Below the pieces are notes generated by a model. It made no database searches, was not told the origin of the DNA, and saw nothing but the letters and a program-made list of their open reading frames with translations. Made by a program: the position numbers and the translations under genes. Shown one piece after another: positions 35,765 through 54,373 of a DNA stretch of 64,000 nt. Within the stretch, counting starts at the first letter, position 1; each line of letters begins with the position of its first letter. The stretch spans positions 2,046,001 to 2,110,000 of the forward strand of contig JAPEUQ010000004.1 in the NCBI GenBank assembly GCA_027946365.1. Direction: 5' to 3'. This DNA comes from Kalmusia sp. IMI 367209 (Eukaryota > Ascomycota > Dothideomycetes > Pleosporales > Didymosphaeriaceae).

Positions 35765-38176
35765 TTATTTCAGAGTAATCCGCGTCTTGCGTCGCTCACA
35801 ACGCTCCCATGCTCCACACTGGATAGTTGCGAGACCTCGTCGTTCCGCCCATTGTTTGCCATGATCCCGTTCCAATAACATCACATGTAGGAGACTACAA
35901 TTTGGTTTCCGACAGTAGATGTTATCAGTGTAACCTCGAAGAAGAGCTCGCGCGCCCGACCCACGTGCCTGAGTCTCGCACATGGGACAAACAACCGCGG
36001 ACAAAAGCACTAAATCGTACCGTGGGTGGGTATCTCTCATTGACACTTGAGTGACAGTCCAGAAGCAAGCGTACATGATCCCGCACCACTTGCCTTCAGG
36101 ATGCATCCGCATTTTCGCATGCCCAGTTTTCGAGTCGCGCTCGCCGACATAAAAAGGCTGGACACTGATTACTTCAGCATCGAAATGAATAATACCGTGC
36201 CCATATCCTAGAGAATAAGCAGTGCTATCTTGAATTTGGTCTTCCTGTTTCATCCGTACGATGGAGCGAACGGAATTTTCGGACGTGTCGGGAATTCCAT
36301 AAGACGTTTTAACATTCTCGAGCTTACTTGTTAGACTTGAATCTGGCTTTCGGTTCACGGTCGAAAGTCCCTTGATCATAAAATCGTGGAGAAACAGTGG
36401 TCCGTTGTAATGACTGGCCTTTGTTTTCCATCCTGCCCATGACCAGCTAGGGAAGTCATCGTCGCGTTCAGTGAGGTGATCGGGAACACATATTTCGTTC
36501 CACAACAAGCAAAAGTCCAGCAAATACTCAGGAAACCCTCCAGTTGTATGACCCGGCAGTGACGTTGTCAGTGCGGCTAAAAGACCAAAGAATGCGTTGA
36601 GCTTGTCCTTTGGAAAACTCAATTTACGAGTGGCAATTGGTGCACAAGATATGTGTATGCTGCCATTTTGAGTTGCCACCCATGTGAATTCACCGAAAAG
36701 TCTCCGTTGGCGAGTTTATGATGGCCAGCAAAAGTATCTGTGGTCTTTGGATTTGCCAAACAGAAAGGATCTAACATTGTATGCACCTGGGTGTTACTCC
36801 CACCCGCAAGATCTGGGGAAAGTAATGTGATGTTCTTGGCATCACAGTGGAAAATCCCATGTTGACAGTAGAAATATGTCAAATGGTTTGTAAAGTAGAG
36901 ACGTCGATAAGATAGGAGACGCTCTTGGAATGTCCAAGCTCTTCGCTCATATGTGGATTGGCGCAGCATGTGCAACAAGCTTGGTGGATATGTCCTCAGC
37001 GAAATTATATGCTCATTCCCTGGATTATTCCCTACATGTTTAGCAAACCATTCGCAGATAAACGGCATTCTTGGGTTTCCCACAGTCCCTGGTATGGCTT
37101 GTGTGGTGTCCGCAGCTGACAGGTCAACTAATGTTACCAGAGCACTGCTGTATATCACATCCATATGCGAAATGTTAAGGTGCCTTTCAGTTTCGTTATC
37201 TTGTTCGATGCTGAGTCGATCGACCCACACATACCTCTCCCCAATGCGTTTCACGACTTCCATGGCGCTCGTTATAGCCGATGGAAGTTTGAAACGCTCT
37301 AAGTGTAAAGCTCCGGGACATTCCAATTCACTACGATTCGAAACAAGTAGCTCGAGTCCTGGAATACATCCCCAGACATAGCTCAAAGCAACATATCGAC
37401 CATAGGATGTTATTTTGACGAGACATTGTACTTGCACATCCACCACAGTCAAATCAAGTGAAGCGGCTTCGAAAACTTTTCTAGCTGTGGAAAGTGGTCT
37501 TCTGACTGAAACGGAGTCTTCCGCTTCATTTTTATCATGCAGCAAATTGTATGTCACATGATCCTCTTCCGTTGAAAACGTTCGATGAGCTTCTTGTGAG
37601 GGGATAGCATGTCTTCCTCGAATTTCCGGGTGTCCGCTTCTACAACTTTCGATCCAAGAGGTATACAATTCCGGAATCAGTGGATTATCAGCCAAATCTG
37701 AAAAATCAATTTCATCTCCAATAATACTTCCATGGTAGTTTTGATGATCATCGTACAACCGTGCGATTCTTGTCTCCACGTTGACTTCCAAATGGTACAG
37801 AACTTGCTCATACTGAGCGTATATATGCTTTCGTGCTGGGATATTAGCAGTCATCTCTGATCTAAAAGACATAAAACCAAGGGCCAGCCGACACAGAATG
37901 CATTTGCGTAATCGGTGAAGGTTGTAAACATTTCCTAGTGAGAAAATGTATGGAGTCTTCCACCCATAGGGAATACGCTTATCCGTGGGTAGAAGCGCAT
38001 GTATGACCCCCTTACACCCATCGCAGATGGAGGAATAGTCTGTATCCTTTTCGAAGAGTGCTCCGTTGATTTTGTATTCGTCCTATGTCCCGTCAGCCCA
38101 GCCGCGACTCCGTCATTTCATTTCATGCGCTCACCGAACTGTGATTCCAATATGAGCGCCTTTTTTTGTTGGCCAT
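35765..38176 (-). pseudogene. HET-domain (heterokaryon incompatibility) gene with one frameshift
   Basis: The first exon is 38176-38135 (MANKKRRSYWNHSS). After a 52-bp intron (GTGAGC...GCTGAC...ATAG, 38083-38134) the second exon begins DEYKINGALFEKDTDYSS. It has two CxxC pairs (CDGC, then CILC) and the HET motifs: YVALSYVWG, ERYVWVDRLSIEQDN, YSSALVTLVDLSAAD and RRAWTFQERLL. The frame ends at 36619, but HET-like sequence resumes in the next frame from about 36640 (TRKLSFPKDKLNAF, DDFPSWSWAGW) and runs to 35765. The break at 36633-36640 fits one missing base. HET proteins trigger non-self cell death after hyphal fusion, and broken alleles are common in the family. Whether this is a real null allele or a sequence error is open. 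Confidence 0.78.
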
Positions 38177-38920: not shown

Positions 38921-40129
38921 CTATAAATCCACCCTAGCATCTTCCCCAGCCCAAGCCCTCCTAATCAATTCCCGAACCTTGCTATGCTCAATCTCTCGTG
39001 GATTCCAATACGGTTTCGAAACCGCAATGTCTACTGCACGATCGATATCCTCTTCCTTCATTCCATACGCCTTCAAACCCTTCTCTACATTTAATTTCTG
39101 TAACAACACGTTCAAACCATACACTGCATCTTTCCCATTGCAGTCTGGCAACACTGTGACCAGCTTTTTCATAGTGTCAGGCACCGCTGGTGCATTGTAT
39201 GCAAGTGCGTGTGGCAAGACTATCGTGTGCGTTTCTGCGTGCGGGAGATTGAAACTGCCGCCTAGCGTGTGGCAGAGCTTATGGTGCAACGACATGCCCA
39301 CAGCGCCAAGACAGGTACCGCAGAGCCAGGCGCCGTATAGCGCAGATGAGCGCGCGACTTTTGACTGTGAATCAGCCATGACCCGTGGGAGTGCCGTAGA
39401 TAGTGCTCGTATGCCTTCCTGGGCTAGTAGCTCAATGATAGGGTTTCCATTTTGCGCATATAGGGCTTCAACCGCGTGTGCAATGGCATTGACACCTACA
39501 ACTCGGGACACCAAGTCAGCGAGAGTCATTCGGCGGAGATGAGTACCTATGTATGCCTCAACCCAGCGGAAGAGATGTTATCTTCACGGTGCTAAGATGC
39601 ATCTAGTTTGTACCCGGCCCTACGCACCACTCGTTGCTGTCAGGGATGTAGGGAGCGTGAGAGTTAAATCAACATCGTAAATCACAGTCCCCGGCAGAAT
39701 GCTTGCATCTGAGCGGGTCTCTTTTCGTCCGCTGGCCGTTTCGCCTAGGATTGGCGTGACTTCGCTGCCAGCATATGTCGTAGGAATTGCGATGTGGTAG
39801 AGCCCTGTCCGTGTGCTGATGGCTTTGCCTAGACCTATTGTACTACCCCCTCCGATTGATATTACCGAATCGGCACCGGACTCTCGTGCTATCTTGATTG
39901 CCTTTTCCGTGATATCGATTGGGGTGTGCATGGTAGCGTCGGTGAAGACACTAGAAAATTTACCATCAAGGATCCTGCCAATATCAGCAGCTTGTAAAGC
40001 CTGATGTGGAGTGGAAAGGATAAGTGGGTTGCATCTGTTCAACCTGAAAAGCTCGGAGGGTAATTTAGAAATCGTTCCGCTGCCAAAACTAATGTGAGCA
40101 GGGTTGCTGCTGTACACGAATGTTGCCAT
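38921..40129 (-). CDS. maleylacetate reductase
   Basis: Reduces maleylacetate to 3-oxoadipate with NAD(P)H, the last step before the beta-ketoadipate pool. Exons on the minus strand 40129-39628 and 39495-38921, joined over a 132-bp intron (GTGCGT...TTGTAG), give 358 aa, the family length. It belongs to the iron-containing alcohol dehydrogenase fold: SIGGGSTIGLGKAI (about 91-104) for the nucleotide, PTTYAGSEVTPI (about 116-127), NAIAHAVEALYA at the splice junction, and HHKLCHTLGG and LPHAETHTIVLPHALAYN in the metal-binding C-terminal half. It is divergent from hydroxyquinol dioxygenase with 275 bp between the starts, so substrate production and consumption are probably co-regulated from one promoter containing a dyad at 40243-40262. 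Confidence 0.95.
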
Positions 40130-40242: not shown

Positions 40243-40262
40243 GCGGCAAATACCTTAGCCGC
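40243..40262. promoter_or_regulatory. candidate QutA operator, reductase/dioxygenase promoter
   Basis: GCGG-CAAATACCTTAG-CCGC. It lies between the divergent maleylacetate reductase (ATG 114 bp away) and hydroxyquinol dioxygenase (ATG 143 bp away). It matches four similar dyads elsewhere in the cluster. Confidence 0.7.
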
Positions 40263-40404
40263 ACTTCCCCACGTCATACGTCTTTCAATCAATTGGTCAG
40301 ATCATGACGACGTGACACTAGGCGTTCGGCAGTAATTTTCGAAGATATCATTGGCGATGTATATCCAATCTACCCTTTACTGCAGATATACTACTAAAAT
40401 CACC

Positions 40405-41409
40405 ATGGCGGAAGCAATTGCAACCCAGAAAGCACTTTCACTGAAAGACCTTACCATTGACAACATCACCGGAAACGTTCACGCCATCAATGCGAACTGC
40501 GCCGACCGTCGCCTCAAGTTCCTTCTGCAGCGCCTTGTAACACACTTACATGACTTCGCACGCGAGACTCGCCTCAGTACATCTGAATGGGAAGGTGCAA
40601 TCCAATTTCTCACCCAAGTTGGTCAGATCTGTAGTCCCGTGCGTCAAGAATTCATCCTGTTATCTGACGTACTCGGCTTGTCTCTACTCGTGGACTCGAT
40701 CGATCATCCCAAGCCACCTGCCTCAACCGACGGTACAGTGTTAGGCCCATTCCACACACATGAAGCTGTTCACGAGCCAAATGGCGCGTTGATATCGCAT
40801 GACGAGGACGGCGAGCCCATGTTGGTTATCTGCACTGTTAAAGATACAGCAGGCAGACCGATTCCTGGAGTCAAGATTGATGTTTGGGAAACAGACTCGA
40901 AAGGATTCTATGACGTGCAGCACGCAGATCGAAAGGGTCCAGATGGGCGTGCCGTGGTAGAAAGCGATGAAAACGGCGAGTTCTATTTCAAAGCTATTGT
41001 ACCTGTCCCATACCCGATTCCGCACGACGGCCCTGTAGGCAAGCTGCTCCAGAAACTTAATCGTCACCCGTACCGACCCTCACATTTTCATTTCCTGTTC
41101 GATAAACCTGACTATGACCGACTCATTACGGCTCTTTATCTGAGAGGCGATCCGTATGAGAGGACGGACGCAGTGTTTGGGGTGAAGGAGTCGCTAATTG
41201 TAGATTTGAAGAATGTTTCGGACTATAACGGATTAGCAGAGAAGCATGCGGTTAGGCCTGAAGCAAAACTGATGCAGTATGATTTCGTGCTCGTTAGTAA
41301 GCAAGAGGCGGATGAGCTGCGACACAAGCTTGCGTTGGAGGCTTTAGAGAAACAAGGGATTGAAGGGGTCACGGTGATTGATGGAATGTTGGTACCTGAT
41401 GTAGATTGA
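40405..41409 (+). CDS. hydroxyquinol 1,2-dioxygenase (intradiol ring cleavage)
   Basis: Cleaves hydroxyquinol (1,2,4-trihydroxybenzene) between its 1,2-hydroxyls to give maleylacetate. The ATG at 40405 gives 334 aa; an in-frame ATG at 40357 would add 16 residues of unlikely sequence. The N-terminal helical dimerisation domain (about 10-105) precedes TVLGPFHTHEA, which is typical of hydroxyquinol and catechol intradiol enzymes. The four Fe(III) ligands of the family are visible as Tyr169 (GFYDVQ), Tyr203 (VPYPIPHDG), His227 and His229 (RPSHFHF). Assignment to hydroxyquinol rather than catechol rests on overall likeness and on the adjacent maleylacetate reductase, whose substrate is exactly this enzyme's product. 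No introns. Confidence 0.93.
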   Translation: MAEAIATQKALSLKDLTIDNITGNVHAINANCADRRLKFLLQRLVTHLHDFARETRLSTSEWEGAIQFLTQVGQICSPVRQEFILLSDVLGLSLLVDSIDHPKPPASTDGTVLGPFHTHEAVHEPNGALISHDEDGEPMLVICTVKDTAGRPIPGVKIDVWETDSKGFYDVQHADRKGPDGRAVVESDENGEFYFKAIVPVPYPIPHDGPVGKLLQKLNRHPYRPSHFHFLFDKPDYDRLITALYLRGDPYERTDAVFGVKESLIVDLKNVSDYNGLAEKHAVRPEAKLMQYDFVLVSKQEADELRHKLALEALEKQGIEGVTVIDGMLVPDVD

Positions 41410-41940
41410 ATGCCACCACACCGAGTAATGGAAGTTCCACGATTATTACTTCATAACAACATATATCTGGAACCGCTCCCATGGATTCATTAAGCTCTCC
41501 GAATCCTCACTCCGTGTTATAGCACAGCCAGAATAGTCTTCATGGTTTGATACACGCGCACATTTTGTCTACTTCGATCCAAGGCACTGTAACTATCATA
41601 GTATCAACTATGACGTCAACCTATACTCGCCCTTGGCGAGCTACCCACGTGTTGGCGCGTACGACAGAGGAAGTTCAAATCGGCAAATGTCTTCTCCGCC
41701 GTTCATACGATCCCGCACTTCATACCCTACTAGATGCGGAAACACCCCGCACCCCGAAATCAGGGTGTTAATCAACAGATGAGTCAATTTTCGGGAGATA
41801 CTGTGTGTGATAAATCCTAGTGCTGCAAGGTACAGCTCCCCGGTTTTTGCAGCATTTATACACCCTGCGCTTTTTTACAGACTTTTTTTATACATCCAAA
41901 CTTTAAAAACATCTATTCCATCCATTCAAGTCGGATCAGA
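41410..41940. promoter_or_regulatory. promoter region of the shikimate/quinate dehydrogenase-like gene
   Basis: No gene is supported here (the frame at 41547-41771 lacks motifs). It contains the dyad at 41680-41699 and a T-rich/TATA stretch just before 41900. Confidence 0.5.
41680..41699. promoter_or_regulatory. candidate QutA operator
   Basis: TCGG-CAAATGTCTTCT-CCGC, 242 bp upstream of the ATG at 41941. It keeps the CGG-N12-CCG spacing, AAA and CTT core of the other cluster dyads. Confidence 0.6.
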
Positions 41941-42864
41941 ATGTCTACGAACCGCATAGTCGCTTCAAACTCAGAAGCCAGAAACCTCCACCTAGTCGGC
42001 ATTAATGTAACCCACTCCATTGCACCCTCGATGCACAATCACATCGCTCGTTCCCTTGGCCTCCCTTGGACCTTCTACGCTACCGAATGCCCCTCGTTAT
42101 CCGACATCATGGCCCTAGCGCGCGACCCCAAAACTGCCGGCCTAGTCGTCACCATGCCGTATAAGAACACCGTTATGCAGCACCTGGACGGACTCGATGA
42201 GCTGGCCGTCCAAATTGGCGCCTGTAACAACGTGTACCGCGATCTGAAAGACCCTACAAAGCTAAGGGGTACTAACACAGATTGGCTGGGCATTAGGGGG
42301 TGCCTGCTTGAGGGCGGAGAAGTGGTGAGCCAAAAGCCGGCTCTAATCGTAGGAGCTGGAGGTGCGAGTCGCGCTGCAGTTTACGCTCTGCACACGACGT
42401 TCCACGCTTCGACGATTTACATATTGAATCGCGACGATGCGGAAGTTGAGGCTCTACTCCTAGATACTAAGCGCCTCTCTACACCCCCAATGATTGTGCA
42501 TGTCAAGACTCCTGAGCAGGCGCAGGGGCTCGCAACGCCATACTACATCGTTGGCACAGTGCCGGACTTTGAGCCTACGACAGCTGAAGAGCTGGCTGTC
42601 AAGGCGTCACTGAACGTTTTCCTGGAAAGAAACGATAAAGGCGTATTGTTGGATATGTGCTTCAAGCCGCGGCGGACGAGGATGATCAAGAAGGCGGAAA
42701 AGGATGGGTGGTCCTGCGTAGAGGGGACACATGTGATTGGGTATCAGATTGAGGAACAGTATCGGCTTTGGGCTGGAGAGGAGAAAGTTTTGGGTTTAGA
42801 TGGGGAGGGGGCGAGGAATGTGTTGTCAGTGGAGGCAGAGAAAGCAGCTGGAATCAACTTTTAA
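41941..42864 (+). CDS. shikimate/quinate dehydrogenase-like protein 1
   Basis: 307 aa, intronless. Catalyses NAD(P)-linked interconversion of quinate/dehydroquinate or shikimate/dehydroshikimate if active. The substrate-binding domain has GINVTHSIAPSMHNH (about 20-34) and the catalytic lysine block VVTMPYKNT (Lys75) with Tyr where most relatives have His. The partner Asp is in GTNTDWLGI (Asp114). The NAD(P) fold has GAGGASRAA (about 138-146). ACNNVYRD replaces the usual A-V-N-T-V block. These departures suggest a quinate/shikimate dehydrogenase of the fungal catabolic group (QutB-like) or a diverged relative rather than a biosynthetic enzyme. Its position in the quinate cluster supports a catabolic role. 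Confidence 0.88.
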   Translation: MSTNRIVASNSEARNLHLVGINVTHSIAPSMHNHIARSLGLPWTFYATECPSLSDIMALARDPKTAGLVVTMPYKNTVMQHLDGLDELAVQIGACNNVYRDLKDPTKLRGTNTDWLGIRGCLLEGGEVVSQKPALIVGAGGASRAAVYALHTTFHASTIYILNRDDAEVEALLLDTKRLSTPPMIVHVKTPEQAQGLATPYYIVGTVPDFEPTTAEELAVKASLNVFLERNDKGVLLDMCFKPRRTRMIKKAEKDGWSCVEGTHVIGYQIEEQYRLWAGEEKVLGLDGEGARNVLSVEAEKAAGINF

Positions 42865-42955
42865 AAGACACTTAGTCGTAGCTCCCACTTCTGTAGGCGC
42901 TTAGCCAGGCCGAATCAGGTTTAATTTCATACTTCGGAGCATGCCTCAATGCTGA

Positions 42956-43981
42956 CTACGCATTCAAGCGAAGCCGCTGCACAAATTTCTTCCACGCTTC
43001 GATGCCTCTTCTCGCATGTTCCCCTGGGACGTGCTCTCCCTCTTCATTCATTGTTCTTGAGAATAGTTCCATAGATACCCAACCCTTATACCCGAGCCCC
43101 TCGATGATTGCCCTAGCGACATCTTCAGAAGGAAGATATGCTCCCCTGTCTGTTTCGTACATGTACGCTCTTGCATTTCTCGACCAGTTCATCCTAGCCG
43201 GATTACCGTCCACATGATACGGGTGCCCATTGACAAGAGGTTTCTCCATCCGCTCCGCATCAACAACCTGGATGTAGAATACCTTTTCGAGATCAACATC
43301 ACAAACTAATCGCTTGAGCGAGGCGGCCAGATCGGCATCCGCGTCAGGCATCTTGCCTGTTGGGGATGTAGGGTCTCCCCAAACGCGGCCAGCGATGTTG
43401 AAGGTATCGAGACACAGACCAAAGTTAGGCCTGTTCACCTTCTGTAGGACTGCGTATGATTTCTCCCATGTGTCGATGTGTGTGCTCCAGCAGAGGGCCT
43501 CATAAGCAAAGCGGATGGGAGGATCCTCTTTGATTCCGAGATCTGCTAGTTCGATAAGGTCGCCAGCAATCACGTCGAGATCGCTCGTTAATTGATCTGA
43601 TGGGAGGAAGTTGGCTGGGATCTGTATGGTGTTTGTCCCTAAATGTTTGGCGATCTTGAACCAAAGTTTGATCTTTTCAATGAGACGAACATGCTGGTCT
43701 CGATCAAGAAGACCTTCATAAAAGAGAAAAGGCTGTAGGCTGATTATAGTGATACCAAGCTCGTCGAGAATCTTTCTTGCATTTTGAGCAGCTGAGAGGA
43801 TTTGATCGTTATTAGGGTCATCGACGTTATGCAATTGCTTCGCCAAATAATCGAGGTCCTCATAGAAAATTTCGATGCCCTGGAAACCATATCTGGCGGC
43901 TTCCCGCGCTTTTGTCGCGAAATCGTGGAGCCAGGCGCGACCGAGGGACGCAGAGAATAGAGCAGGACGAAAGTCGGACAT
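42956..43981 (-). CDS. qutC: 3-dehydroshikimate dehydratase
   Basis: Converts 3-dehydroshikimate to protocatechuate, the step that commits quinate/shikimate carbon to aromatic catabolism. 341 aa, intronless, ATG at 43981. It has the TIM-barrel xylose-isomerase-like fold, with an N-terminal ASLGRAWLHDFATKAREAAR and the family segment RYGFQGIEIFYEDL. Acidic and polar residues expected to hold the divalent metal lie in IRFAYEALCW, FGLCLDTFNIAGR, VFYIQVVDAER and WVSMELFSR. Length and motifs match QutC/Qa-4. A TATATA box sits about 40 bp upstream (44020-44025, minus strand) and a candidate operator lies at 44131-44150. Confidence 0.94.
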   Translation of the reverse strand: MSDFRPALFSASLGRAWLHDFATKAREAARYGFQGIEIFYEDLDYLAKQLHNVDDPNNDQILSAAQNARKILDELGITIISLQPFLFYEGLLDRDQHVRLIEKIKLWFKIAKHLGTNTIQIPANFLPSDQLTSDLDVIAGDLIELADLGIKEDPPIRFAYEALCWSTHIDTWEKSYAVLQKVNRPNFGLCLDTFNIAGRVWGDPTSPTGKMPDADADLAASLKRLVCDVDLEKVFYIQVVDAERMEKPLVNGHPYHVDGNPARMNWSRNARAYMYETDRGAYLPSEDVARAIIEGLGYKGWVSMELFSRTMNEEGEHVPGEHARRGIEAWKKFVQRLRLNA

Positions 43982-44130
43982 GATAGGCTAACAGCAAAGC
44001 AAGCAGAAGATCAAGAGTGTATATAGACCCGATAAGACAGAATCAAATGGCGACACGAGGGTTTGGGTCAAATACAAACAGTATGATGGTGGGTGGAGCT
44101 GCTGAGATTAGTGACGCCATAGTTGAGAAA

Positions 44131-44150
44131 GCGGGAAAATGCATTACCGC
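44131..44150. promoter_or_regulatory. candidate QutA operator, qutC promoter
   Basis: GCGG-GAAAATGCATTA-CCGC, 150 bp upstream of the qutC start. The inner 16 bases match 12 positions of the Qa-1F/QutA consensus as I remember it (GGRTAARYRYTTAYCC). Confidence 0.7.
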
Positions 44151-44304
44151 TCGGTCGAAATTGCTCATTGGATGTAGCTTTCCGCTCCTTTAGCGAAGAA
44201 TCATGTCAAAAATGTGTCTAAGCTAGTAGCTGAATCGTTCATGATACCTAAGTGCTTCATAAAGTCGGGTGGATTGGCGGACCTATGCATCATTAACGTT
44301 GATC

Positions 44305-46677
44305 CTAGCACATAAGCGAGATTTGTGAATACCAGTCGGCAGAGTCGAGATCTGCTAGGCTCTGAAAAAGGCCATCTTCGTCTATGTCGGTGGAGACGAA
44401 ATCCATGATGTCCGCGTTCGTGCTATCCGCAATGTCCAGGTGCCCTTGCTCTGGAAGTGGATGCGTCTCCGTTTCGAGGTCTGAAAGGTCATGAGTAAGG
44501 AGGCTCGTTTCGGGAACAAGTACATCTGGATTAACAGTGCTCGCTTCTGTGGAGAGTGTCGAGAAATCTGTTTCGAAGATACTTGAAACATCTACGCGGC
44601 TACGCTTTCTACCATGATGGCCTTGCTGTCCGGTAGAACTTTCAGGCATTACACCTGATACTCGCCGAAGTGAAGGGCTAATGTAAGCTGGTCCATTTGT
44701 AGGAAATCGTGACTCTTCTTCAACAAGGCGAAGGGATTGATCAATTTCAAGCAGTAGATTTTGAAGGGATAAGGCCTCAGTTTCAGTCTCATTCAGTATT
44801 CCGAATCTATCGGTCATCTTGAGATGCAGTGCCGAGATATATATGATACACGTCGGGGGGACAACACGTGATCCTATATCTCGAACAATGTCTTGTAGCA
44901 TGTTACCAAGCTTTCGCAAGCTTTGATTAGTGTTTCCGATACCTGGAAGAGAGTTTTTGTCAATTGATTGTACCTTTAGTGTTTCTGTAAGATTAGCTGC
45001 GAACCAATGGAGATTCAGAGTGTGGGGAGTTGCGTTCGAAGCCGACACAATAGGCTCCAGCGACGAAAAATGCGTTATCCAGTCTCGAGTATTTTGCCTA
45101 AGAATCGTTGGAGCATTGGGGGTGAACAAGCCACCAACAGATCTGAGAACGTCGTTGAGAATGCCTATAGATTCAATGAAGTTATTGAAGGTGCTCAGAA
45201 CCCGAGCAGGTGTGTGATGAGATAGGGAATAGTCGCTGGAAGTGCCGTATGGTATCCATGGCTCCCATTCCTCGATTCCTTCGGTTCGGAGAAGGCCAAT
45301 GTTGACTATGTCGGACCGTTGGAAATAAGGTCGGACACGTACCCAGGCGGCTACAATACTATCCAAAGCCATACAACACAGAGCTGTTCGTTTGATTCCG
45401 TCATCGAGAGATGACCCTGAATTCGGATGTAGACATGCAAAGCCTTCAATGGTAGTTAATGCATACACAGCTCTCCCAATAGCAGACCATGCTCCTTTTC
45501 GGTCTCTGAGTTGTATTCGGACAAGGACTAAAATCAGAAGGGCTCTGACATGGCCCAGTTCGTACGCTTCAGTCTGATCAGGAAATAAATCCTTGGTTGC
45601 GGCTAATAATGTTTCCGGTTGATATGGATGCATACTACCTAGATCTGGGACAGCCTGTGATGATGAATATGCTAACACCGTCATGAGAAAGGCTCGATCA
45701 CCCTGCGAGACATCGGGCGCTACGGCTCCATTATCTTGACAGGCCGCAAGTAGATGGGCACTCCTTAATAAGTCGTGTTTCTCACAAATTGGCAACCAGC
45801 AATGCGTGCTAGTGAAGTGCAAACCAAGAAGATTTCCCCAATTGGCGGGTAGAGAAGTACTCGACGATGCCTCTAGTTGAAAAAGGACATGCTGCTGCTG
45901 CTGCTGCTGCTGCTGAGAGAGTGTTGTGTCGTGAGTCACCGGAGTCTGGGAGCTCAGATTCGAAAGGGAAGGATCAATGTCTTGGGGTTGAGTTGGTACC
46001 GGCGCAGCGAAGTCAATAGGGGGCCGACTGGTAGCGTTGGTAGGAGAAGTCGACTCGGTGTGCATGGGACTTGGAAAGTAACCAGGCTGAGAATTGTAAT
46101 CATCCACGGAGCTTCGATCGTGAGTCATACGAGCGGCCAGTACCATGGCCTGCGAGGCTCTGCGGTCGAAGTCATTGACTGTTTCGGTACTCTCGCCATC
46201 ATCGGTCGTCTCAGCGGCAGACAGGAAGTGTTCGACCTGTTTCAATACCGCGCTCGTCCGCCAAGCGTCTATTAAGGGTTCTACCGAGTCACCGGTCGGC
46301 GGGTTCTCTAGAGCTTGAAGACGGAAAGGAGGTGCCTCCTCGTGGCCATCAAGCAACGAAGTAAGCCAGGCATCGGTCCCTTTCACAGTGACAAATAACA
46401 GTCCAAGTAGTGTCTCGAGTGCCCGGACGTATCCTGTTCGCAGCCCTCGCTTCCTGTTCTGTCGGTAGGTACAATCACGTCTAGCGCGCAGGCAATTATC
46501 GCACGCCGGCCTTTCGCCATTGCATCGATCCTTGCGTTTTCGACATGCCTCACATGCCTCACTCACACGATGGCGAGGCCTGCGTAAGGGTGGATCGTCG
46601 TCGTCAATTGCGTCCGCCTGGGTGCGTGGCCGTTTCGCGTGGCTCAGTCGTGCTTTTTCCCCACTGCTCGCGGGCAT
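44305..46677 (-). CDS. qutA: quinate pathway activator, Zn2Cys6 (QutA/Qa-1F-like)
   Basis: 790 aa, single exon. The N-terminal zinc cluster is C42-x2-C45-x6-C52-x6-C59-x2-C62-x6-C69 (ACEACRKRKDRC, CDNC), preceded by a basic stretch. The middle homology segment has LGLHFTSTHCWLPICEKHDLLRSA, typical of QutA/Qa-1F. A run of eight glutamines (CTG repeat at 45892-45915) precedes it, and the acidic C-terminus could be the activation region. In Aspergillus and Neurospora this protein activates all quinate structural genes and is blocked by the repressor, encoded here divergently 294 bp away, in the absence of quinate. A candidate autoregulatory dyad lies in the shared promoter. The assignment is strong because of sequence plus location. 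Confidence 0.9.
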   Translation of the reverse strand: MPASSGEKARLSHAKRPRTQADAIDDDDPPLRRPRHRVSEACEACRKRKDRCNGERPACDNCLRARRDCTYRQNRKRGLRTGYVRALETLLGLLFVTVKGTDAWLTSLLDGHEEAPPFRLQALENPPTGDSVEPLIDAWRTSAVLKQVEHFLSAAETTDDGESTETVNDFDRRASQAMVLAARMTHDRSSVDDYNSQPGYFPSPMHTESTSPTNATSRPPIDFAAPVPTQPQDIDPSLSNLSSQTPVTHDTTLSQQQQQQQQHVLFQLEASSSTSLPANWGNLLGLHFTSTHCWLPICEKHDLLRSAHLLAACQDNGAVAPDVSQGDRAFLMTVLAYSSSQAVPDLGSMHPYQPETLLAATKDLFPDQTEAYELGHVRALLILVLVRIQLRDRKGAWSAIGRAVYALTTIEGFACLHPNSGSSLDDGIKRTALCCMALDSIVAAWVRVRPYFQRSDIVNIGLLRTEGIEEWEPWIPYGTSSDYSLSHHTPARVLSTFNNFIESIGILNDVLRSVGGLFTPNAPTILRQNTRDWITHFSSLEPIVSASNATPHTLNLHWFAANLTETLKVQSIDKNSLPGIGNTNQSLRKLGNMLQDIVRDIGSRVVPPTCIIYISALHLKMTDRFGILNETETEALSLQNLLLEIDQSLRLVEEESRFPTNGPAYISPSLRRVSGVMPESSTGQQGHHGRKRSRVDVSSIFETDFSTLSTEASTVNPDVLVPETSLLTHDLSDLETETHPLPEQGHLDIADSTNADIMDFVSTDIDEDGLFQSLADLDSADWYSQISLMC

Positions 46678-46971
46678 TGTCGTCCGATACCTTTACAGCC
46701 ACAGGCTTCTGATCCATGAGGCCCAATCGAGGTTGAAGGAAACATATGCTATGATCCCCGGGTTGTCATAACATCGCATGTGTCCCCTTGCATTAGCACT
46801 GCCTTTCTAGAATGGGAGGCGGAAGCGGCAAAAGACTTAGCCGCTTATTGTCACGTGATCTCATTGCGCCCACGAACCGGGGCTGTCCATTGTACCTAAG
46901 AATGGTCTTCCCTGGCTCTAGCCGACTTGGCCACAGCAGGCTCGCACAGTGACATTCATCGTCAAAGCTCG
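46678..46971. promoter_or_regulatory. divergent qutA/qutR promoter
   Basis: The 294 bp between activator and repressor starts. It contains the candidate operator at 46825-46844 and a CACGTG box just downstream of it. Confidence 0.6.
46825..46844. promoter_or_regulatory. candidate QutA operator in the qutA/qutR promoter
   Basis: GCGG-CAAAAGACTTAG-CCGC, 148 bp from the qutA start and 128 bp from the qutR start. It suggests that activator and repressor expression are both under activator control. Confidence 0.7.
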
Positions 46972-49518
46972 ATGCCTGCCCTCCGCAGCGCCGCAATGTC
47001 TGCACCAGCGAGTCGGCAGCAGTCACCGTCCGAGCAACCGCGTCGCTGTCTGTATAGGCCGAGCGCAGCCCGCTCGACACGCATATATGCTTCCGATGCT
47101 TCCATTGCCCTGGTTGGTATTCGAGGAACGGGATTGTCGACGCTCGCAGTCATGGCCGCCTCCGCGCTTGGTTTTCGCCTACTCGATGCAGACCAACAGT
47201 TTTATCAGGCTACTGGACTTTCACGTGCCAAGTTCAAATCTGTCCACGGAACCTTGAAATATCGCCATGCCGAAATCAGTTCCTTGCGTTCCATGGTGCT
47301 GGAGCATCCGACTAAAGCCGTCATTGTCTGCGGCCCCGGAGCTGTCGAAACCACAGGGCAAGCATTGCTTTCTGAATATGCGTTGGCTCATCCCGTTATA
47401 TATGTGACCCGGGATGTGCATGACATTCAGAGTCATCTACGTGTCTACGATGCAGCAAAGATATCTACACTTCTTGACCTCAGCGCCCCGACCATGCGGT
47501 CCTTGTCCAACTTCGAATTTCATAATCTTTCCTACCTCGATAATCCAACCTTGGGGGATAGTCACAGCTCAGGCAGTCGCTCACCTCAGTCACTGGCGTT
47601 GAAGCAGGTTGAACACGATTTTCTCCGCCTTGTACGCTCGACGACCACCAAGATCTATGGGGAGTCTCGCAATCAGCAGAATCGTCTATTATCGACTCCA
47701 GTTGAAGCCCGACCCTTCACGTACGCGCTGGTTCTATGCTCTCCTATACCCGATATCTTCTGGGACAGCACTCGCCACGTCGACATCCTGGCAGATGTGA
47801 TCGAGCTAACTATACCTTATTCGGAGATGCGTTCGAAATCATCTGTCTTCGACAATGAAGATGCCAACTTTATTACCCGACAATTTTACCTTATCAGAAG
47901 GCACGTCCAATTACCCATTATACTTAACATCCAATTGGACGAACACAACTTTCCCGAGGCCTTAGCGAATATAGCACGCTATTATGATGCCCTCCATCAT
48001 GGGCTACGACTTGCTCCCGACTTCCTTTGCGTTGATCTCAGATGTGATCATGATATGACACGTGGCCTGGCTGCTGTCAAGGGAACTACTAAGATAATTG
48101 CACAGCATCATCATGCTTCGCCTTCCAAGTCTGGCTGGGACACGCAAGGTTATGCTGAAGAGATCACTTTAGCGGAACACTTAGGTGCCGATATGGTCCG
48201 TTTGACTCAGAAGGCAACGTCGGTAGCCGATAATTTTGCCGCTCGATTTTTTTCTGATCAGGCTGCTGCCTCTAATAAACATCACATCCCTATCATAGCT
48301 TATAATACAGGCAGACTGGGAAAGATGTCACGTTACTTCAACAACGTTTTTAGCCCAGTGACTGATCAGTCACTCCTCTCTGTGTCTATACAAGATTTGG
48401 ACGATGCTTTGTTAACGACACAACAATCACAAAGAGCATTGTACTCCTCTCTCCTTCTCGATTCCCTATATTTCGGAATATATGGCAACAACGTTTCTCA
48501 AAGCCTCTCGCCAGCCATGCATAATGCCGCCTTTCGTATTAGTGGAATGCCACATGAATATAAGATTTTTCAGCACCCTACTGTTAAGGATTTAGAAGAC
48601 TTGATAACCGACCCGGACCTGGGCGGCCTTAGTATCACTGCCCCATTCAAGAGCGATGTCATTTCGATTGTCGATTATATGAGCGTCGAGGCCCAAGCCA
48701 TTGGAGCGGTCAATACGCTGGTTCCATTGCGTACTGCTGACACACGCTCGTTGCTTGACAGAAATAGAGCAGGCCCGATTTTAGCTATGTATGGAGACAA
48801 TACAGACTGGGTTGGAGTGCGCAACTGTATACGAAATAATCTCTCGCCTATAAACGTCATCAAACGACAGACCACAGCTCTGGTAATCGGAGCAGGAGGA
48901 ATGGCTCGAGCTACGACGTATGCTCTCATTCGCCTAGGCGTTCGCAATATCTTTATCCACAACCGCACTAAGCAGAAAGCGGAAAGTTTGATCAACCATT
49001 TCCGACAACGCACTCTCGTAGATGATGGCAAAGATGTACGTTCGCACAATCCTGACTCTGAATTCGACAACTCTTCAGCAGCCTTACCAAAGATGAGGAT
49101 CTTGGAAAAGAAGACGGACGCGTGGCCAGATGATGCCGATTATCCTACCATTATCGTATCCTGCGTGGCTACAGAAATTGTTGACGGAAAATCATCAGTC
49201 GATACCAGCCTCTCTACAGAATGGCTTGCGAGTCCCACAGGCGGTGTCGTCATGGAAGTGAGTTGAAACGATGCGAAGCGGTGATGATGAGGCTAATTAT
49301 GCTTATAGCTTTCTTATGCACCTTTACAGACCCCGTTGCTTCAACAAATACAAGAGATAAGTGAGCAAGGATGGATTGCAGTTGACGGCTTGCAGATGCT
49401 GCCGGAACAGGGCAAGATGCAATTTGAACTCTTTACGTCTCGCAGAGCTCCGATTAAGCTTATGTGCAAAGAAGTGGTTAAAGCTTATACGAGAAAAGTC
49501 GCGGCTCAGTCAGACTGA
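46972..49518 (+). CDS. qutR: quinate repressor, AROM-like multidomain protein (QutR/Qa-1S-like)
   Basis: Exons 46972-49257 and 49309-49518 (51-bp intron) give 831 aa. Three domains correspond to the last three of the pentafunctional AROM protein. The first is shikimate-kinase-like, with a degenerate P-loop GIRGTGLST (about 49-57; the Walker lysine is Leu55). The second is type I dehydroquinase-like (about 250-450), where the Schiff-base lysine of the GADxxK block is replaced by Arg410. The third is shikimate-dehydrogenase-like (SQSLSPAMHNAAF, ITAPFKSD, GDNTDWVGV, GAGGMARAT). The protein binds the activator in the absence of quinate and prevents transcription; it is not thought to be enzymatic, which the substitutions support. 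A further in-frame ATG exists at 46996. Confidence 0.93.
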
Positions 49519-49808
49519 TATAAAACAGGTTCGTTTCATTTCACAGAAGTTTAGAAATCTGGTGATCACCGTATAGTTATGGGGCCACTTCATTACAGCC
49601 GGGAAAATCAAAAGCCTCTAGTGGTCGACGTAATATCTAGGCGGCAAAGCTCTTTGCCAGCATCAAATCATCGCTCATTGATCACTTGGGCCACCGCTAA
49701 ATAGCGGATGCACTTCCTAAGTACATTGTTGGAAGGGTTTCCCGTATTTCCAGATACCCTACACACTCACTACCTGGCCTCAATACCTATTGCTGGCACC
49801 ACGAGACA
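49519..49808. promoter_or_regulatory. promoter region of the second dehydrogenase-like gene
   Basis: 290 bp between the qutR stop and the next ATG. It holds the dyad at 49641-49660 and an everted CCGCTA-AA-TAGCGG palindrome at 49694-49707. Confidence 0.55.
49641..49660. promoter_or_regulatory. candidate QutA operator
   Basis: GCGG-CAAAGCTCTTTG-CCAG, 149 bp upstream of the ATG at 49809. The inner GGCAAAG...CTTTGCC arms are the most symmetric of the five copies. Confidence 0.65.
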
Positions 49809-50705
49809 ATGAATAAAACTGCCGAAGCTCAGACTATCCGCGAAGAGCAAGTTCTGAAGCAGAATTATTTCATCTTTGGTCACAATATTTCTCATTCACT
49901 TTCACCTACGTTGCACAATACTGGGTTCCATGAGCTCGGCCTCCCCCATCATTACGCAGTCCACCAAACCGAGGCCGTCGACACAACTGTGGAAAACATC
50001 CTCAAGCAACCAAACTTCGGTGGCGCCTCTGTTACATTTCCGCATAAGCTTCAGATAGGCCGACTTCTAGATTCCATCTCTCCAAGCGCGCAGAAGGTTG
50101 GCGCTGTTAATACAATCGTGGTCCAAGGGCATGGCTCAGAACGGCATCTGCTAGGCGAGAATACAGACTGGGTCGGTATCAGGAGATGTATCGAAAGAAG
50201 TACACAGGGCGATTTGGGTACGTCAACTATGCTAGTGCTGGGCGCTGGGGGTGCAGCTCGAGCAGCTTGCTACACAGCTCAAGTTCTTGGCGTGGCTCAG
50301 CTCCTTATTGTCAACCGAACAGTGTCTAGGGGCGAAGACATGGCATCGAACTTCCAGCAGGTACAGTCTTGTGTCTTGGGCACGTTTCAAGAAGCAGTAA
50401 AGATAGCCACGACCCCGATACGTGTCATTGTAGCATGTGTACCGGCTGATGATCTGGGCGAAGAGAAAATACCATCGGAGCTGTTTTCTGGTTCTGCAAC
50501 GGGTGTTTTGGTGGAGATGGCATATAGACCACAGATTACGGGCATGATGAAAGTTGCCGCTCGATATCCGGGGTGGAAAGTTTGTAAAGGAATCGATGTT
50601 CTTGAGGAGCAGGCGTATGAGCAATTTCAGATGTGGACAGGGAAGCCGCCACCTGTGGGTGCTATGCATGAGGCGATGCGAGCTAAAGCAAAAGCGAACA
50701 TGTAG
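49809..50705 (+). CDS. shikimate/quinate dehydrogenase-like protein 2
   Basis: 298 aa, intronless. A complete shikimate dehydrogenase fold with the canonical catalytic set: HNISHSLSPTLHN (Ser28/Ser30 region), SVTFPHK with Lys80, VGAVNTIV, and ENTDWVG with Asp120. The NAD(P) site is LGAGGAARAA (about 144-153), with NRT at the end of the second strand. Because it keeps all residues expected for activity, it is the stronger candidate of the two paralogues for shikimate or quinate dehydrogenase of the catabolic route. Amino-acid identity alone cannot separate quinate from shikimate preference. Its own promoter carries a candidate QutA dyad, in line with induction by quinate. Confidence 0.9.
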   Translation: MNKTAEAQTIREEQVLKQNYFIFGHNISHSLSPTLHNTGFHELGLPHHYAVHQTEAVDTTVENILKQPNFGGASVTFPHKLQIGRLLDSISPSAQKVGAVNTIVVQGHGSERHLLGENTDWVGIRRCIERSTQGDLGTSTMLVLGAGGAARAACYTAQVLGVAQLLIVNRTVSRGEDMASNFQQVQSCVLGTFQEAVKIATTPIRVIVACVPADDLGEEKIPSELFSGSATGVLVEMAYRPQITGMMKVAARYPGWKVCKGIDVLEEQAYEQFQMWTGKPPPVGAMHEAMRAKAKANM

Positions 50706-50935: not shown

Positions 50936-51709
50936 CTACACCTCAAAACTCCCATCCTCAAGCCACTTCTTCGCCTGATGATATAACAGATTATGCTTAT
51001 CCAGGTTCTCAGTGCCCACATGTCTCCGGTGGCCAGGCAGATCCCTCACCACCTTCACTCCCATAGTCTTCTCCTGCCAATACGCTAGATATCTATATCC
51101 TGGCGGATAAGTCTGTGCCTTCTCTTCATCAATTTCGGGCACTAGAACAGGGTTCACAGGGATGACCTTATCCTTCTCATACCAATGGCGAACCAGTCGC
51201 GCACCCCAATTTTCGTCAACCTTTTCGAAGAAGAAAATGAAACGGCAGTCTGCTTCGACGTCGAAGGTGACAGATGAGTATGTGAAACGTTGGGTTATTG
51301 TTGCTTTGAGCTTAGTGACTGCATGTGTGCCTGCTTTGTTGATGTCGGTGGTGCAGCCGTGGCAGCGGTGCATGATAAAGGCGCCTTTATCCATGCCTGC
51401 CTTCGAGGCCGCAATAAAGTCGGTATATAATACCTTACCAGACCAAGTAGTGTAAACGTGCGCGTTCGGGTGAAAGATAGATTCGAAGTTTTGCCATTCG
51501 CATGCATCTCTGCATCAGCGTAATGCGTTAGTTTGATGATTTTTGTCTGCGGGTAAATAGAAGGAGGGTTTGGAATACCGGTAGCATGGCCACCCTTCCG
51601 CTAGTTCGCGGAGTTTCATGCGCTCGAGAAGAAGGTCGGTAGGTCCGTTGTTGCGAATTGCGGAATCGGGGCGGGAGCCCGCGGGTAAGCTGTGAAGATC
51701 TGTGCTCAT
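50936..51709 (-). CDS. SnoaL-like (NTF2 fold) domain protein
   Basis: Exons on the minus strand 51709-51579 and 51509-50936 (69-bp intron, acceptor GATGCAG) encode 234 aa. The splice restores [20 protein letters not shown], then [11 protein letters not shown], and the exon continues into [19 protein letters not shown]. This is typical of the SnoaL-like NTF2-fold proteins widespread in ascomycetes. Conserved charged blocks follow ([44 protein letters not shown]). Members of the fold include hydroxylases, cyclases and dehydratases of secondary metabolism, but many are uncharacterised, so no reaction is assigned. Intracellular, no signal peptide. It is the first gene beyond the quinate cluster and convergent to it. 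No QutA-like dyad was seen upstream. Confidence 0.86.
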
Positions 51710-53432: not shown

Positions 53433-54373
53433 TCAAACTCGGATTGAACTAACTACCTCCGTGTTGGAATCCCAAGGCCCAGGCAATCCACTCATATTGT
53501 CTTTGAACCAGCAACTTCCTCTCGTGCTAAAATTGGAATAGGCATACTCCGGGTGTACACTCCACTCAGGGACATAGCTTACGCCAGCGCATAAATGCGT
53601 GTCTCCGGTCGATTTGAAACCGTCATAAAAGTCGTTGTATTGAGCACAGGCATCCATGCAGGCAGCCCATGACGTCGTTGAGATTTGGAACATGTCTGAG
53701 AGATATCAGTTGTGTGTCCTCGACTTAATGGGAAAAAGCCGAGGAAATGAACAGGCGCAAACGGGGAGGGTAGATAGAGGCATAGAGGAACGGTTTAGCA
53801 ATACGTACCGCCATTGCCTTTGACTGTGTCGCAGAGTAGCGTAAAGTTGGTAGCTTTATCTCTAAATTTCGCCGTGTATATCGATCCATTCACAGAAGGA
53901 CAGTTGGTTTTTGGAACGATAATCGCTGATGGAGATACAGTTGCATCTGACGCACAAGCACTACTCGAAGAGGTAGAGGAGATTGTCGTTGGCGTGGTCG
54001 TTACTTGGGAGGGAGAAGAGACACTATGTCGCAGTGCCGAAAGCTCTCCACGACATCGTTTCGCCGCCATTCCTCCGGCAACCCCACCTCCCACCGCGCC
54101 AGCTATAGCCACCACGATCGATGCGAGACTTAAGAACGCTATTAGCGCGGGATATCCGCATATAGTTCTTTGCTGATTAGGCTTGCTTCTGCTGTCCTGT
54201 TCAAGCACTTCTATACCCGATGCTGATCCACATACGTATTTCGCGGTGTCCTGTTCGTATTGTGCAGGGATGGCCTGTGGTGTAGTGTCCCATTGCTGGA
54301 TAATTTCCGGGTTCACCGTTATGGAGTACTGCGGGTAGGTTTCAGATGATCCAATGTTTCTGTCCATCTTCAT
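53433..54373 (-). CDS. single-pass membrane protein with a cysteine-rich extracellular domain
   Basis: Exons on the minus strand 54373-53809 and 53695-53433, joined over a 113-bp intron (GTACGT...CTCTCAG), give 275 aa. Residues 1-72 are polar and probably cytosolic. Residues about 75-104 form one transmembrane segment (YPALIAFLSLASIVVAIAGA, then a Gly-rich stretch), followed by basic AAKRCR and a Ser/Thr-rich linker (TTTPTTISSTSSSS) likely to be O-glycosylated. The C-terminal domain (NCPSVNGSIYTAKF, FTLLCDT, AACMDACAQYN, CAGVSYVP, SCWFKDN) has the cysteine spacing of PAN/apple-like modules common in fungal surface proteins. The function is unknown. A sensor or adhesion role would fit the architecture. 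Confidence 0.85.

What the first reader, a model, noticed from the sequence alone, without database searches (positions are those of the whole stretch)
40243..49660. Five matching 20-bp dyads, one in every promoter of the quinate/hydroxyquinol cluster
Sites at 40243, 41680, 44131, 46825 and 49641 share K-CGG-(C/G)-AAA-NNN-C-(T/A)-T-NN-CC-R-S with an exact 12-bp gap between the CGG and its complementary half (the 49641 copy ends CCAG). AAA at positions 6-8, C12 and T14 are invariant. Four sites lie 114-150 bp from their start codons and the fifth at 242 bp; two are in divergent promoters, so together they serve all seven genes. A Zn2Cys6 dimer typically reads inverted CGG halves, and the spacing equals that of the Qa-1F/QutA consensus as I remember it (GG-N12-CC), but the inner bases differ. 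This would define a QutA regulon and extends it to maleylacetate reductase and hydroxyquinol dioxygenase.
Basis: partly seen in the sequence, partly recalled or inferred. Interest (0 to 1): 0.86.

Follow-up and report, generated by a model that had tools for sequence, protein, structure and literature searches.

The report
Second quinate-type regulator with own sites
Six near-identical 18-letter DNA sites sit in front of all eight genes of a fungal gene cluster for breaking down plant ring compounds; they look like the docking sites of a sister of the classical quinate regulator, not of that regulator itself.

Summary
The five sites are real, exactly placed and far from chance. With the first base relaxed, the motif has 29 matches in the 42.8-Mb genome; six fall in these 12 kb. 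It lies upstream of an eighth gene, a gallate/protocatechuate-decarboxylase relative. Only the core is conserved; flanks are random. A matrix built from published Neurospora Qa-1F site patterns ranks four of the six in places 2-5 of the window, the last tied. The sites are thus of the quinate-regulator class, in a CGG-N12-CCG, GGC-half version.

The label 'QutA regulon' is probably wrong. The genome (Kalmusia sp. IMI 367209) holds a second divergent activator/repressor pair on contig C1, among the classical quinate genes. That repressor groups with the Neurospora quinate repressor; the window pair forms a separate clade with another zinc-cluster signature. The C1 promoters have no close match to the window motif.

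Best reading: a paralogous QutA/QutR-type module with its own operator over a dehydroshikimate/protocatechuate-to-ring-cleavage cluster, perhaps the counterpart of the orphan Aspergillus niger module NRRL3_07604/07605. Binding and conservation in related species are untested.

The parts
38924..40129 (-). maleylacetate reductase gene (iron-containing alcohol dehydrogenase family), two open exon frames 39623-40129 and 38924-39577
   Evidence: PF00465 and PF25137; C-terminal exon alone searched: best named PDB matches maleylacetate reductase 3w5s E 2.1e-56 and 3hl0 E 1.7e-54; the top hit 3jzd is named only iron-containing alcohol dehydrogenase
40243..40262 (+). operator site 1 (GCGGCAAATACCTTAGCCGC), divergent promoter of reductase and dioxygenase
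40405..41409 (+). hydroxyquinol 1,2-dioxygenase family gene
   Evidence: PF00775+PF04444; PDB 8r2w hydroxyquinol 1,2-dioxygenase E 1.6e-79 against 5e-30 for the best catechol 1,2-dioxygenase; NCBIfam lists only catechol, chlorocatechol and protocatechuate models, all below cut-off
41680..41699 (+). operator site 2 (TCGGCAAATGTCTTCTCCGC)
41941..42864 (+). quinate/shikimate dehydrogenase-like gene 1; lysine and NTD motif present in the translation
   Evidence: PF08501; 39% identity over 222 aa to the C1 quinate-dehydrogenase candidate; below every NCBIfam cut-off listed
42956..43981 (-). 3-dehydroshikimate dehydratase-like gene
   Evidence: PF01261; weak NCBIfam QuiC match E 4e-20, far below its cut-off; 51% identical over 340 aa to the C1 paralogue
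44131..44150 (+). operator site 3 (GCGGGAAAATGCATTACCGC), the weakest
44305..46677 (-). Zn2Cys6 activator of the RKDR zinc-cluster clade (QutA paralogue)
   Evidence: PF00172+PF04082
46825..46844 (+). operator site 4 (GCGGCAAAAGACTTAGCCGC), divergent promoter of activator and repressor
46972..49519 (+). AROM-like repressor (shikimate kinase, type I dehydroquinase and shikimate dehydrogenase domains); exon 1 to about 49263, second exon inferred to about 49516
   Evidence: annotated as N0V90_004740, 816 aa
49641..49660 (+). operator site 5 (GCGGCAAAGCTCTTTGCCAG), near-perfect palindrome
49809..50705 (+). shikimate dehydrogenase-like gene 2 (AROM type)
   Evidence: NCBIfam TIGR01809 211.3 bits, above its cut-off of 196
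50936..51709 (-). gallate/protocatechuate decarboxylase relative (AGDC1/PPP2 family), exon 2 at 50936-51514, eighth gene of the regulon
   Evidence: PDB 6w54 gallate decarboxylase E 6e-37; the only copy found in the genome by a protein search

Best explanation
The six dyads are the operators of a pathway-specific Zn2Cys6 activator encoded inside the cluster (44305-46677) and held in check by the AROM-like repressor beside it (46972-49519). The pair is a paralogue of QutA/QutR (Qa-1F/Qa-1S). Inferred mechanism: the activator binds as a dimer to CGGCWAAG-N2-CTTWGCCG (CGG-N12-CCG), one dyad per promoter and two of them in divergent promoters, so that all eight genes are switched on together, including its own. 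The repressor, built from shikimate-pathway enzyme domains, blocks the activator until a quinate- or dehydroshikimate-type ligand binds it. The regulated enzymes take a shikimate-pathway intermediate to protocatechuate (dehydratase) and on through decarboxylation and intradiol ring cleavage to maleylacetate and 3-oxoadipate. The canonical QutA/QutR pair with the classical quinate genes sits on contig C1 and probably reads the GGRTAA-type site. Shown: the sites, their enrichment, the paralogy and the absence of close motif matches at C1. Inferred: binding, dimer geometry, ligand, route through the pathway.
For: Six sites in six promoters serving eight genes; 6 of 29 genome matches in 11.7 kb. 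Only the N12 inverted CGG spacing is enriched, and flanks are random. A matrix made only from 14 of the 16 published Qa-1F patterns (two without a spacer left out) ranks four of six sites in places 2-5 of 63,984 16-mers of the window, the fifth place tied with one other; the remaining two sites score lower, with 16 and 80 places scoring at least as high. A second pair lies on C1 near DHQase II, quinate-dehydrogenase-like, sugar-transporter, dehydroshikimate dehydratase and Gfo/Idh/MocA genes. C1 repressor 48.5% against window repressor 37% identical to the Neurospora quinate repressor, and it groups with that protein at 100/100 support. Activator tree: the C1-type group stands on a 1.41 branch at 100/100 apart from the window type; Paraphoma chrysanthemicola and Neocucurbitaria cava have both types. 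Zinc cluster: RKDR in 38 of 46 window-type hits, AREK in 83 of 92 C1-type hits; the residue in the place of Gal4 Lys18 is K in 44 of 46 and R in 92 of 92 (the window factor is aligned to Gal4). C1 promoters have no window-type site at 0-1 mismatch, and two of the four hold the top two Qa-1F-like places of 70 kb, GGATAAACACTCTTCC and GGGTGAACGTTTATCG. Activator and repressor relatives share a contig length, taken as linkage, in 19 of 57 activator hits.
Against: No binding, expression or deletion data. Promoters of related species could not be read, so conservation is untested. Site 3 is poorly predicted by the others, and one place outside the cluster outscores it. The two regulators have not been shown to discriminate the two site types; C1 QutA could read both. 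The C1-side motif evidence is thin: the top two of 70 kb lie in two of four promoters (P about 0.004, chosen after the fact), the dehydratase and dehydroquinase promoters are not among the top 14, and two of the four C1 promoters have a window-type match at 2 mismatches (6 such places in 70 kb). Perfect GGRTAA-N4-TTAYCC has 10 genome places, no more than its reversed control and none in the C1 cluster. Databases put the name 'quinic acid utilization activator' on members of both activator types. No aromatic monooxygenase that could make hydroxyquinol is among the 20 window frames scanned; the rest of the genome was not searched for one. No type II dehydroquinase or sugar transporter was found in this cluster. 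The decarboxylase relative has Cys where AGDC1 has the essential potassium ligand Glu88.
Confidence: 0.72

Rival explanations
1. One reading: these are operators of the one canonical QutA, whose regulon here extends to hydroxyquinol genes.
For: Same spacing and partly the same half-sites as Qa-1F sites; divergent activator/AROM-like repressor pair, dehydratase and dehydrogenase-like genes present; relatives of the window activator in Colletotrichum and Fusarium are named quinic acid utilization activator.
Against: A better QutA/QutR candidate pair sits on C1 with the classical gene set; window-type sites are absent from C1 promoters at 0-1 mismatch.
Confidence: 0.08
2. Cross-regulation: the C1 QutA and the window activator both bind these dyads, so quinate switches on both clusters as one cascade.
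For: The published Qa-1F patterns score four of six window sites highly; one of ten perfect canonical places in the genome lies about 380 bp upstream of an unlinked intradiol dioxygenase gene.
Against: Near-invariant outer C/G and GGC half-sites in the window; a diagnostic difference in the zinc cluster. The single upstream case can be chance: it also lies inside overlapping open frames of 171 and 136 aa.
Confidence: 0.12
3. The window pair is the orthologue of TanR/TanX, so the cluster serves gallate or tannin use.
For: A SnoaL-like decarboxylase related to AGDC1 is among the 20 genes most induced when A. niger tanX is deleted, though its own deletion did not stop growth on gallate (PMC10512348, section 10 and passages); the window repressor keeps the type I dehydroquinase domain, which the paper did not detect in the other candidate, NRRL3_07605.
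Against: Tannic acid pathway genes are not linked to their regulators (PMC12610400); none of the eight cluster genes is a tannase; dehydratase and dehydrogenases point to dehydroshikimate; AGDC1 Tyr146 is Val here, as in the protocatechuate-acting PPP2 (alignment; residue roles from passages of PMC7862292).
Confidence: 0.15
4. The repeats are inherited from duplicated promoters or are a composition artefact without regulatory role.
For: Two of the genes are related dehydrogenases.
Against: Flanking identity is 26%, i.e. random, with 71% in the core; shuffles do not reproduce the sites.
Confidence: 0.02

Closest known systems
Qa-1F/Qa-1S of Neurospora crassa and QutA/QutR of Aspergillus nidulans, with their GG-N12-CC response elements
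   Same: Zn2Cys6 activator beside an AROM-like repressor; same half-site spacing; catabolic genes of shikimate-type compounds alongside.
   Different: Paralogous pair; outer CGG/CCG near-invariant and mostly GGC rather than GGR left halves; no type II dehydroquinase or sugar transporter found in the cluster; ring-cleavage genes inside.
TanR/TanX of Aspergillus niger
   Same: Same activator-repressor architecture; regulon includes an AGDC1-like SnoaL decarboxylase (PMC10512348).
   Different: Targets unlinked to the regulators; tannases and a FAD monooxygenase rather than dehydroshikimate and hydroxyquinol genes.
Orphan module NRRL3_07604/NRRL3_07605 of Aspergillus niger
   Same: By locus numbers (inference), a dehydroshikimate dehydratase paralogue (07603, PMC12610400) and an AGDC1 homologue (07601, PMC10512348) lie next to the pair, matching the order dehydratase-activator-repressor here.
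   Different: No type I dehydroquinase domain was detected in 07605, while the window repressor has one; sequences not compared here.
CDO4 cluster of Ceratocystidaceae
   Same: Intradiol dioxygenase beside quinate genes and a Gal4-type factor (PMC8896014, passages).
   Different: Contains dehydroquinase and permease; no motif reported in the passages read.
Hydroxyquinol cluster of Scedosporium apiospermum
   Same: Adjacent maleylacetate reductase and hydroxyquinol dioxygenase (PMC8283699, passages).
   Different: Neighbours are a CoA-transferase and a cytochrome P450, not quinate-type genes.

Membership tests
QutA/QutR-type activator-repressor modules (broad family) | Zn2Cys6 activator gene next to a repressor built from the last three AROM domains | tested here: met
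   PF00172+PF04082 divergent from SKI, DHquinase_I and Shikimate_dh domains
QutA/QutR-type activator-repressor modules (broad family) | Repressor acts on the activator and is relieved by a pathway ligand | not testable with these tools
   no biochemical data
Canonical QutA/Qa-1F (orthologue) | Pair is the genome's closest to the Neurospora quinate repressor/activator | tested here: not met
   Repressor only: C1 48.5% against window 37% to P0292; C1 repressor groups with it at 100/100. The Neurospora activator itself was not compared.
Canonical qut/qa cluster | Linked quinate dehydrogenase, type II dehydroquinase, dehydroshikimate dehydratase and permease | tested here: not met
   The only type II dehydroquinase found is on C1; no sugar transporter among the cluster genes; dehydratase and dehydrogenase-like genes present
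Qa-1F response elements | Inverted GG halves at N12 spacing | tested here: met
   6 of 6 sites; only k=12 of the inverted CGG dyads enriched
Qa-1F response elements | GGRTAA-type halves | tested here: not met
   Five of six left halves are GGCAAA, the sixth GGGAAA; five sites have 3-4 mismatches to GGRTAA-N4-TTAYCC in register, the DSD site 2 in a register shifted by one base; GGCAAA does occur in the published list
TanR/TanX | Orthology to the A. niger pair | not tested
AGDC1/PPP2 decarboxylases | Trp35, Asp40, Trp61 and His86 present | tested here: met
   Asp40, Trp61 and His86 read from the alignment; Trp35 position read from exon 1, GWPCYR, splice inferred
AGDC1/PPP2 decarboxylases | Glu88 potassium ligand | tested here: not met
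   Cys at this place
Hydroxyquinol 1,2-dioxygenase | Closer to hydroxyquinol than to catechol dioxygenases | tested here: met
   1.6e-79 against 5e-30 among solved structures; substrate untested

The most novel reading that the evidence does not exclude
This is a fourth kind of QutA/QutR-derived switch, the counterpart of the A. niger module NRRL3_07604/07605 whose targets are unknown. It has its own operator (CGG-N12-CCG with GGC halves) and its own cluster leading from dehydroshikimate through protocatechuate decarboxylation to ring cleavage. A change between Arg and Lys at the base-reading position of the zinc cluster accompanied the change of operator after duplication.
Probability: 0.4. 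Interest if true: 0.65.

Novelty: new variant of a known kind. Interest (0 to 1): 0.5.

Why it matters
One genome offers two paralogous activator-repressor pairs with the same spacing rule but apparently different half-sites, a clean case for asking how a Zn2Cys6 regulator and its operators diverge together. It gives a testable target set for a regulator clade whose members databases sometimes label 'quinic acid utilization activator' (for example in Colletotrichum and Fusarium), and a lead on the A. niger module described as regulating genes of unknown function. The Qa-1F/Qa-1S pair is also the basis of the Q-system (PMC7078239, passages), so an operator-distinct relative could be useful as a separate expression switch.

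Tried and rejected
Canonical QutA regulon: rejected as the main reading after the C1 pair was found. Promoter duplication: rejected by random flanks. Genome-wide regulon with the strict motif: not supported. There are 23 off-cluster matches; 12 of the 23 were looked at, and 9 of these lie inside open frames of 130 aa or more. By the same crude measure 1 of the 6 cluster sites does too (site 1, in the reductase frame upstream of its ATG). The intergenic match to CGGCWAANNNNTTWGCC at C27:2322828, one of five exact matches listed (four are in the cluster), has no pathway family in the 4 of 9 nearby frames scanned. The C23:3604694 match lies downstream, not upstream, of a sugar-transporter exon. 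Aromatic monooxygenase near the cluster: none among 20 window frames scanned with Pfam; the one FAD oxidoreductase, at 11131-12573, is of the DAO family. Pattern CGGCWAANNNNTTWGCC with 2 mismatches was uninformative: 2,209 matches on both strands against 2,188 in the control. Papers: Gluck-Thaler and Slot 2018 is not held. No paper describing this motif or this cluster was seen in the listings, of which searches list only part of what they found (20 of 26, 10 of 22, 10 of 14, 12 of 86); subscription journals are mostly outside that library. The protein searches were capped as well (57 hits; best 120 of 229; best 120 of 140). Structure prediction was not used, since no claim depended on it.

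Full report
Observation. The window lies in a 42.8-Mb fungal genome at C25:2046001-2110000. The C1 activator query matched at 100% a protein of Kalmusia sp. IMI 367209 on a contig of the same length as C1, and the window repressor did the same on a contig of the same length as C25, so this is the organism. A search without the first base finds a sixth on the minus strand at 51942-51926. The six 20-mers agree at CGG, AAA, the C and T of the right half, and CC; five of six have CCG at the right end.

Is it more than chance? In the window, 6 matches against 0.05 in shuffles, although the bare dyad CGG-N12-CC is not enriched (94 against 88). In the genome, 29 matches, 6 of them in 11.7 kb, against 18 for the reversed pattern over the whole genome. 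Because the pattern came from five of the sites, only the sixth is an independent hit; 0.0005 matches are expected in its promoter. Leave-one-out scoring puts five of six at rank 1 in 64 kb; site 3 ranks 11th and is the weak one, outscored by a place at 4652 even when all six are in the matrix. In the six intergenic regions (2,603 bp), inverted CGG triplets occur at N12 in five regions against 0.27 expected; no other spacing or arrangement among 100 exceeds one occurrence. Sixty-base flanks are no more alike than random (26%), so selection on the core rather than copying explains the likeness.

The genes. Maleylacetate reductase (solved relatives of that name at 2e-56 and 2e-54 for its C-terminal exon; Pfam family), hydroxyquinol dioxygenase, two shikimate/quinate-dehydrogenase-like genes, a dehydroshikimate dehydratase-like TIM barrel (its only solved match is named 4-hydroxyphenylpyruvate dioxygenase), a Zn2Cys6 factor and an AROM-like repressor. 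The eighth gene is a relative of AGDC1/PPP2, cofactor-free decarboxylases of gallate and protocatechuate (passages of PMC7862292). It keeps Asp40, Trp61 and His86 and Trp35 (exon 1). It has Val at Tyr146, as in PPP2, but Cys at the potassium ligand Glu88, so its activity needs testing.

Whose sites are they? A matrix built only from 14 of the 16 Qa-1F patterns printed in PMC3114802 (passages; the two without a spacer were left out) puts four of the six sites in places 2-5 of the whole window, the last of them tied with one other place; the remaining two score lower, with 16 and 80 places scoring at least as high. So the sites belong to the quinate-regulator class. But the genome has a second pair. 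On C1 lie a dehydroshikimate dehydratase-like gene, a Gfo/Idh/MocA oxidoreductase (the domain family that PMC12610400 gives for the A. niger qutH orthologue), a Zn2Cys6 activator divergent from an AROM-like repressor, and about 20 kb further a sugar transporter, a quinate-dehydrogenase candidate and the only type II dehydroquinase found. The C1 repressor (its longer open frame) is 48.5% identical to the protein named Neurospora quinate repressor (P0292), the window repressor 37%. In a tree of 35 repressors the C1 protein joins Neurospora at 100/100, and the window protein lies in another group of 27. In a tree of 36 activators the two Kalmusia factors are far apart, and Paraphoma chrysanthemicola and Neocucurbitaria cava have one of each type. 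These are selected rows, 36 of 176 and 35 of 121 available, and the tool flagged four long rows (P0051, P0052, P0054, P0057) in the activator tree as unsure.

Zinc clusters. Of 55 window-type hits (two shared with the other search moved out), 46 show the cluster: 38 read RKDR and 44 of 46 have Lys at the Gal4 Lys18 place. Of the 120 C1-type hits listed (of 229), 92 show it: 83 read AREK and all 92 have Arg there. The window factor is aligned to Gal4; the C1-type place is counted from the cysteines. That Gal4 Lys18 touches the CGG triplet is recalled. The linker after the cluster is conserved in both groups (44 of 46 and 90 of 92), which would fit the shared N12 spacing (inference).

Two site types in one genome. 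The C1 promoters have no match to CGGNWAANNNNTTWNCCG at 0 or 1 mismatch; two of the four have one at 2 mismatches, of 6 such places in the 70 kb. Two C1 promoters hold the best Qa-1F-like places of the 70 kb, GGATAAACACTCTTCC between activator and repressor and GGGTGAACGTTTATCG between permease and dehydrogenase (P about 0.004 after the fact); the dehydratase and dehydroquinase promoters are not among the top 14. The perfect canonical pattern occurs at ten places in the genome, no more than its control, and not in the C1 cluster. One of those ten is about 380 bp upstream of an unlinked intradiol dioxygenase frame; four of the ten were looked at. The divergence of operators is therefore well supported on the window side and only suggested on the C1 side.

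Counterpart elsewhere. A. niger has four such modules: gaa, qut, tan and NRRL3_07604/07605, the last regulating 'genes with currently unknown function' (PMC12610400, passages; PMC10512348, section 10 and passages). The same papers name NRRL3_07603 as a dehydroshikimate dehydratase paralogue, minimally expressed under the conditions tested, and NRRL3_07601 as an AGDC1-type decarboxylase homologue. Read by locus number, the A. niger order is decarboxylase, one gene, dehydratase, activator, repressor; the window has dehydratase, activator, repressor, one gene, decarboxylase. This is an inference from numbers, not a sequence comparison, and 07605 was reported to lack the dehydroquinase domain that the window repressor has. 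TanR/TanX remains a rival. Relatives of the window activator and repressor share contig lengths in 19 of 57 activator hits, so the pair seems to travel together.

Mechanism. By analogy with QutA/QutR, the activator would bind the dyads as a dimer and the repressor would hold it until a ligand arrives (the model for Qut in passages of PMC12610400 and PMC10512348; not tested here). The cluster would convert dehydroshikimate to protocatechuate and feed ring cleavage. The route to hydroxyquinol is incomplete: decarboxylation gives catechol, whereas hydroxyquinol needs an oxidative step (a protocatechuate hydroxylase, PhyA, does this in A. niger, PMC12388069 passages). No such gene was found among the window frames scanned, and the rest of the genome was not searched for one.

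Novelty. Quinate genes beside an intradiol dioxygenase and a Gal4-type factor are already in print for Ceratocystidaceae (PMC8896014, passages), and adjacent hydroxyquinol dioxygenase and maleylacetate reductase for Scedosporium (PMC8283699, passages). What I did not see in the listings is this operator, or a paralogous pair with its own operator over such a cluster.

Noticed in passing
C1:2669887-2704396 (L062, L054, L055): A qut-type gene set with activator and repressor in one part and sugar transporter, quinate-dehydrogenase candidate and type II dehydroquinase about 20 kb away.
   Followed up: yes
C25:2620108-2620123 (L069:1608): One of ten perfect GGRTAA-N4-TTAYCC places of the genome lies about 380 bp upstream of an intradiol dioxygenase frame related to hydroxyquinol dioxygenases.
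   Followed up: partly
C1:2630985-2632195: A second hydroxyquinol-dioxygenase-like gene, 65% identical to the window's in its longest piece, about 38 kb from the C1 qut genes.
   Followed up: no
window 54770-54785: GGCTAATGGCTCATCC is the best match of the window to the published Qa-1F patterns, outside the cluster; the nearest long frame is 53795-54421 on the minus strand.
   Followed up: no
C2:137320-138474 (L045): A further distant AROM-like repressor relative (26% identity, 692-aa frame), possibly of the GaaX kind.
   Followed up: no
window 50936-51709: The decarboxylase relative has Cys in place of the potassium-binding Glu88 essential in AGDC1.
   Followed up: partly
window 4652-4669: CGGCGAATCCCTCTGCCG scores above site 3 with the six-site matrix, about 34 kb from the cluster.
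   Followed up: no
window 36619-38082: A HET-domain (heterokaryon incompatibility) gene borders the cluster.
   Followed up: no
window 49600-49616: CGGGAAAATCAAAAGCC, a half-matching dyad 41 bp from site 5 in the same promoter.
   Followed up: no
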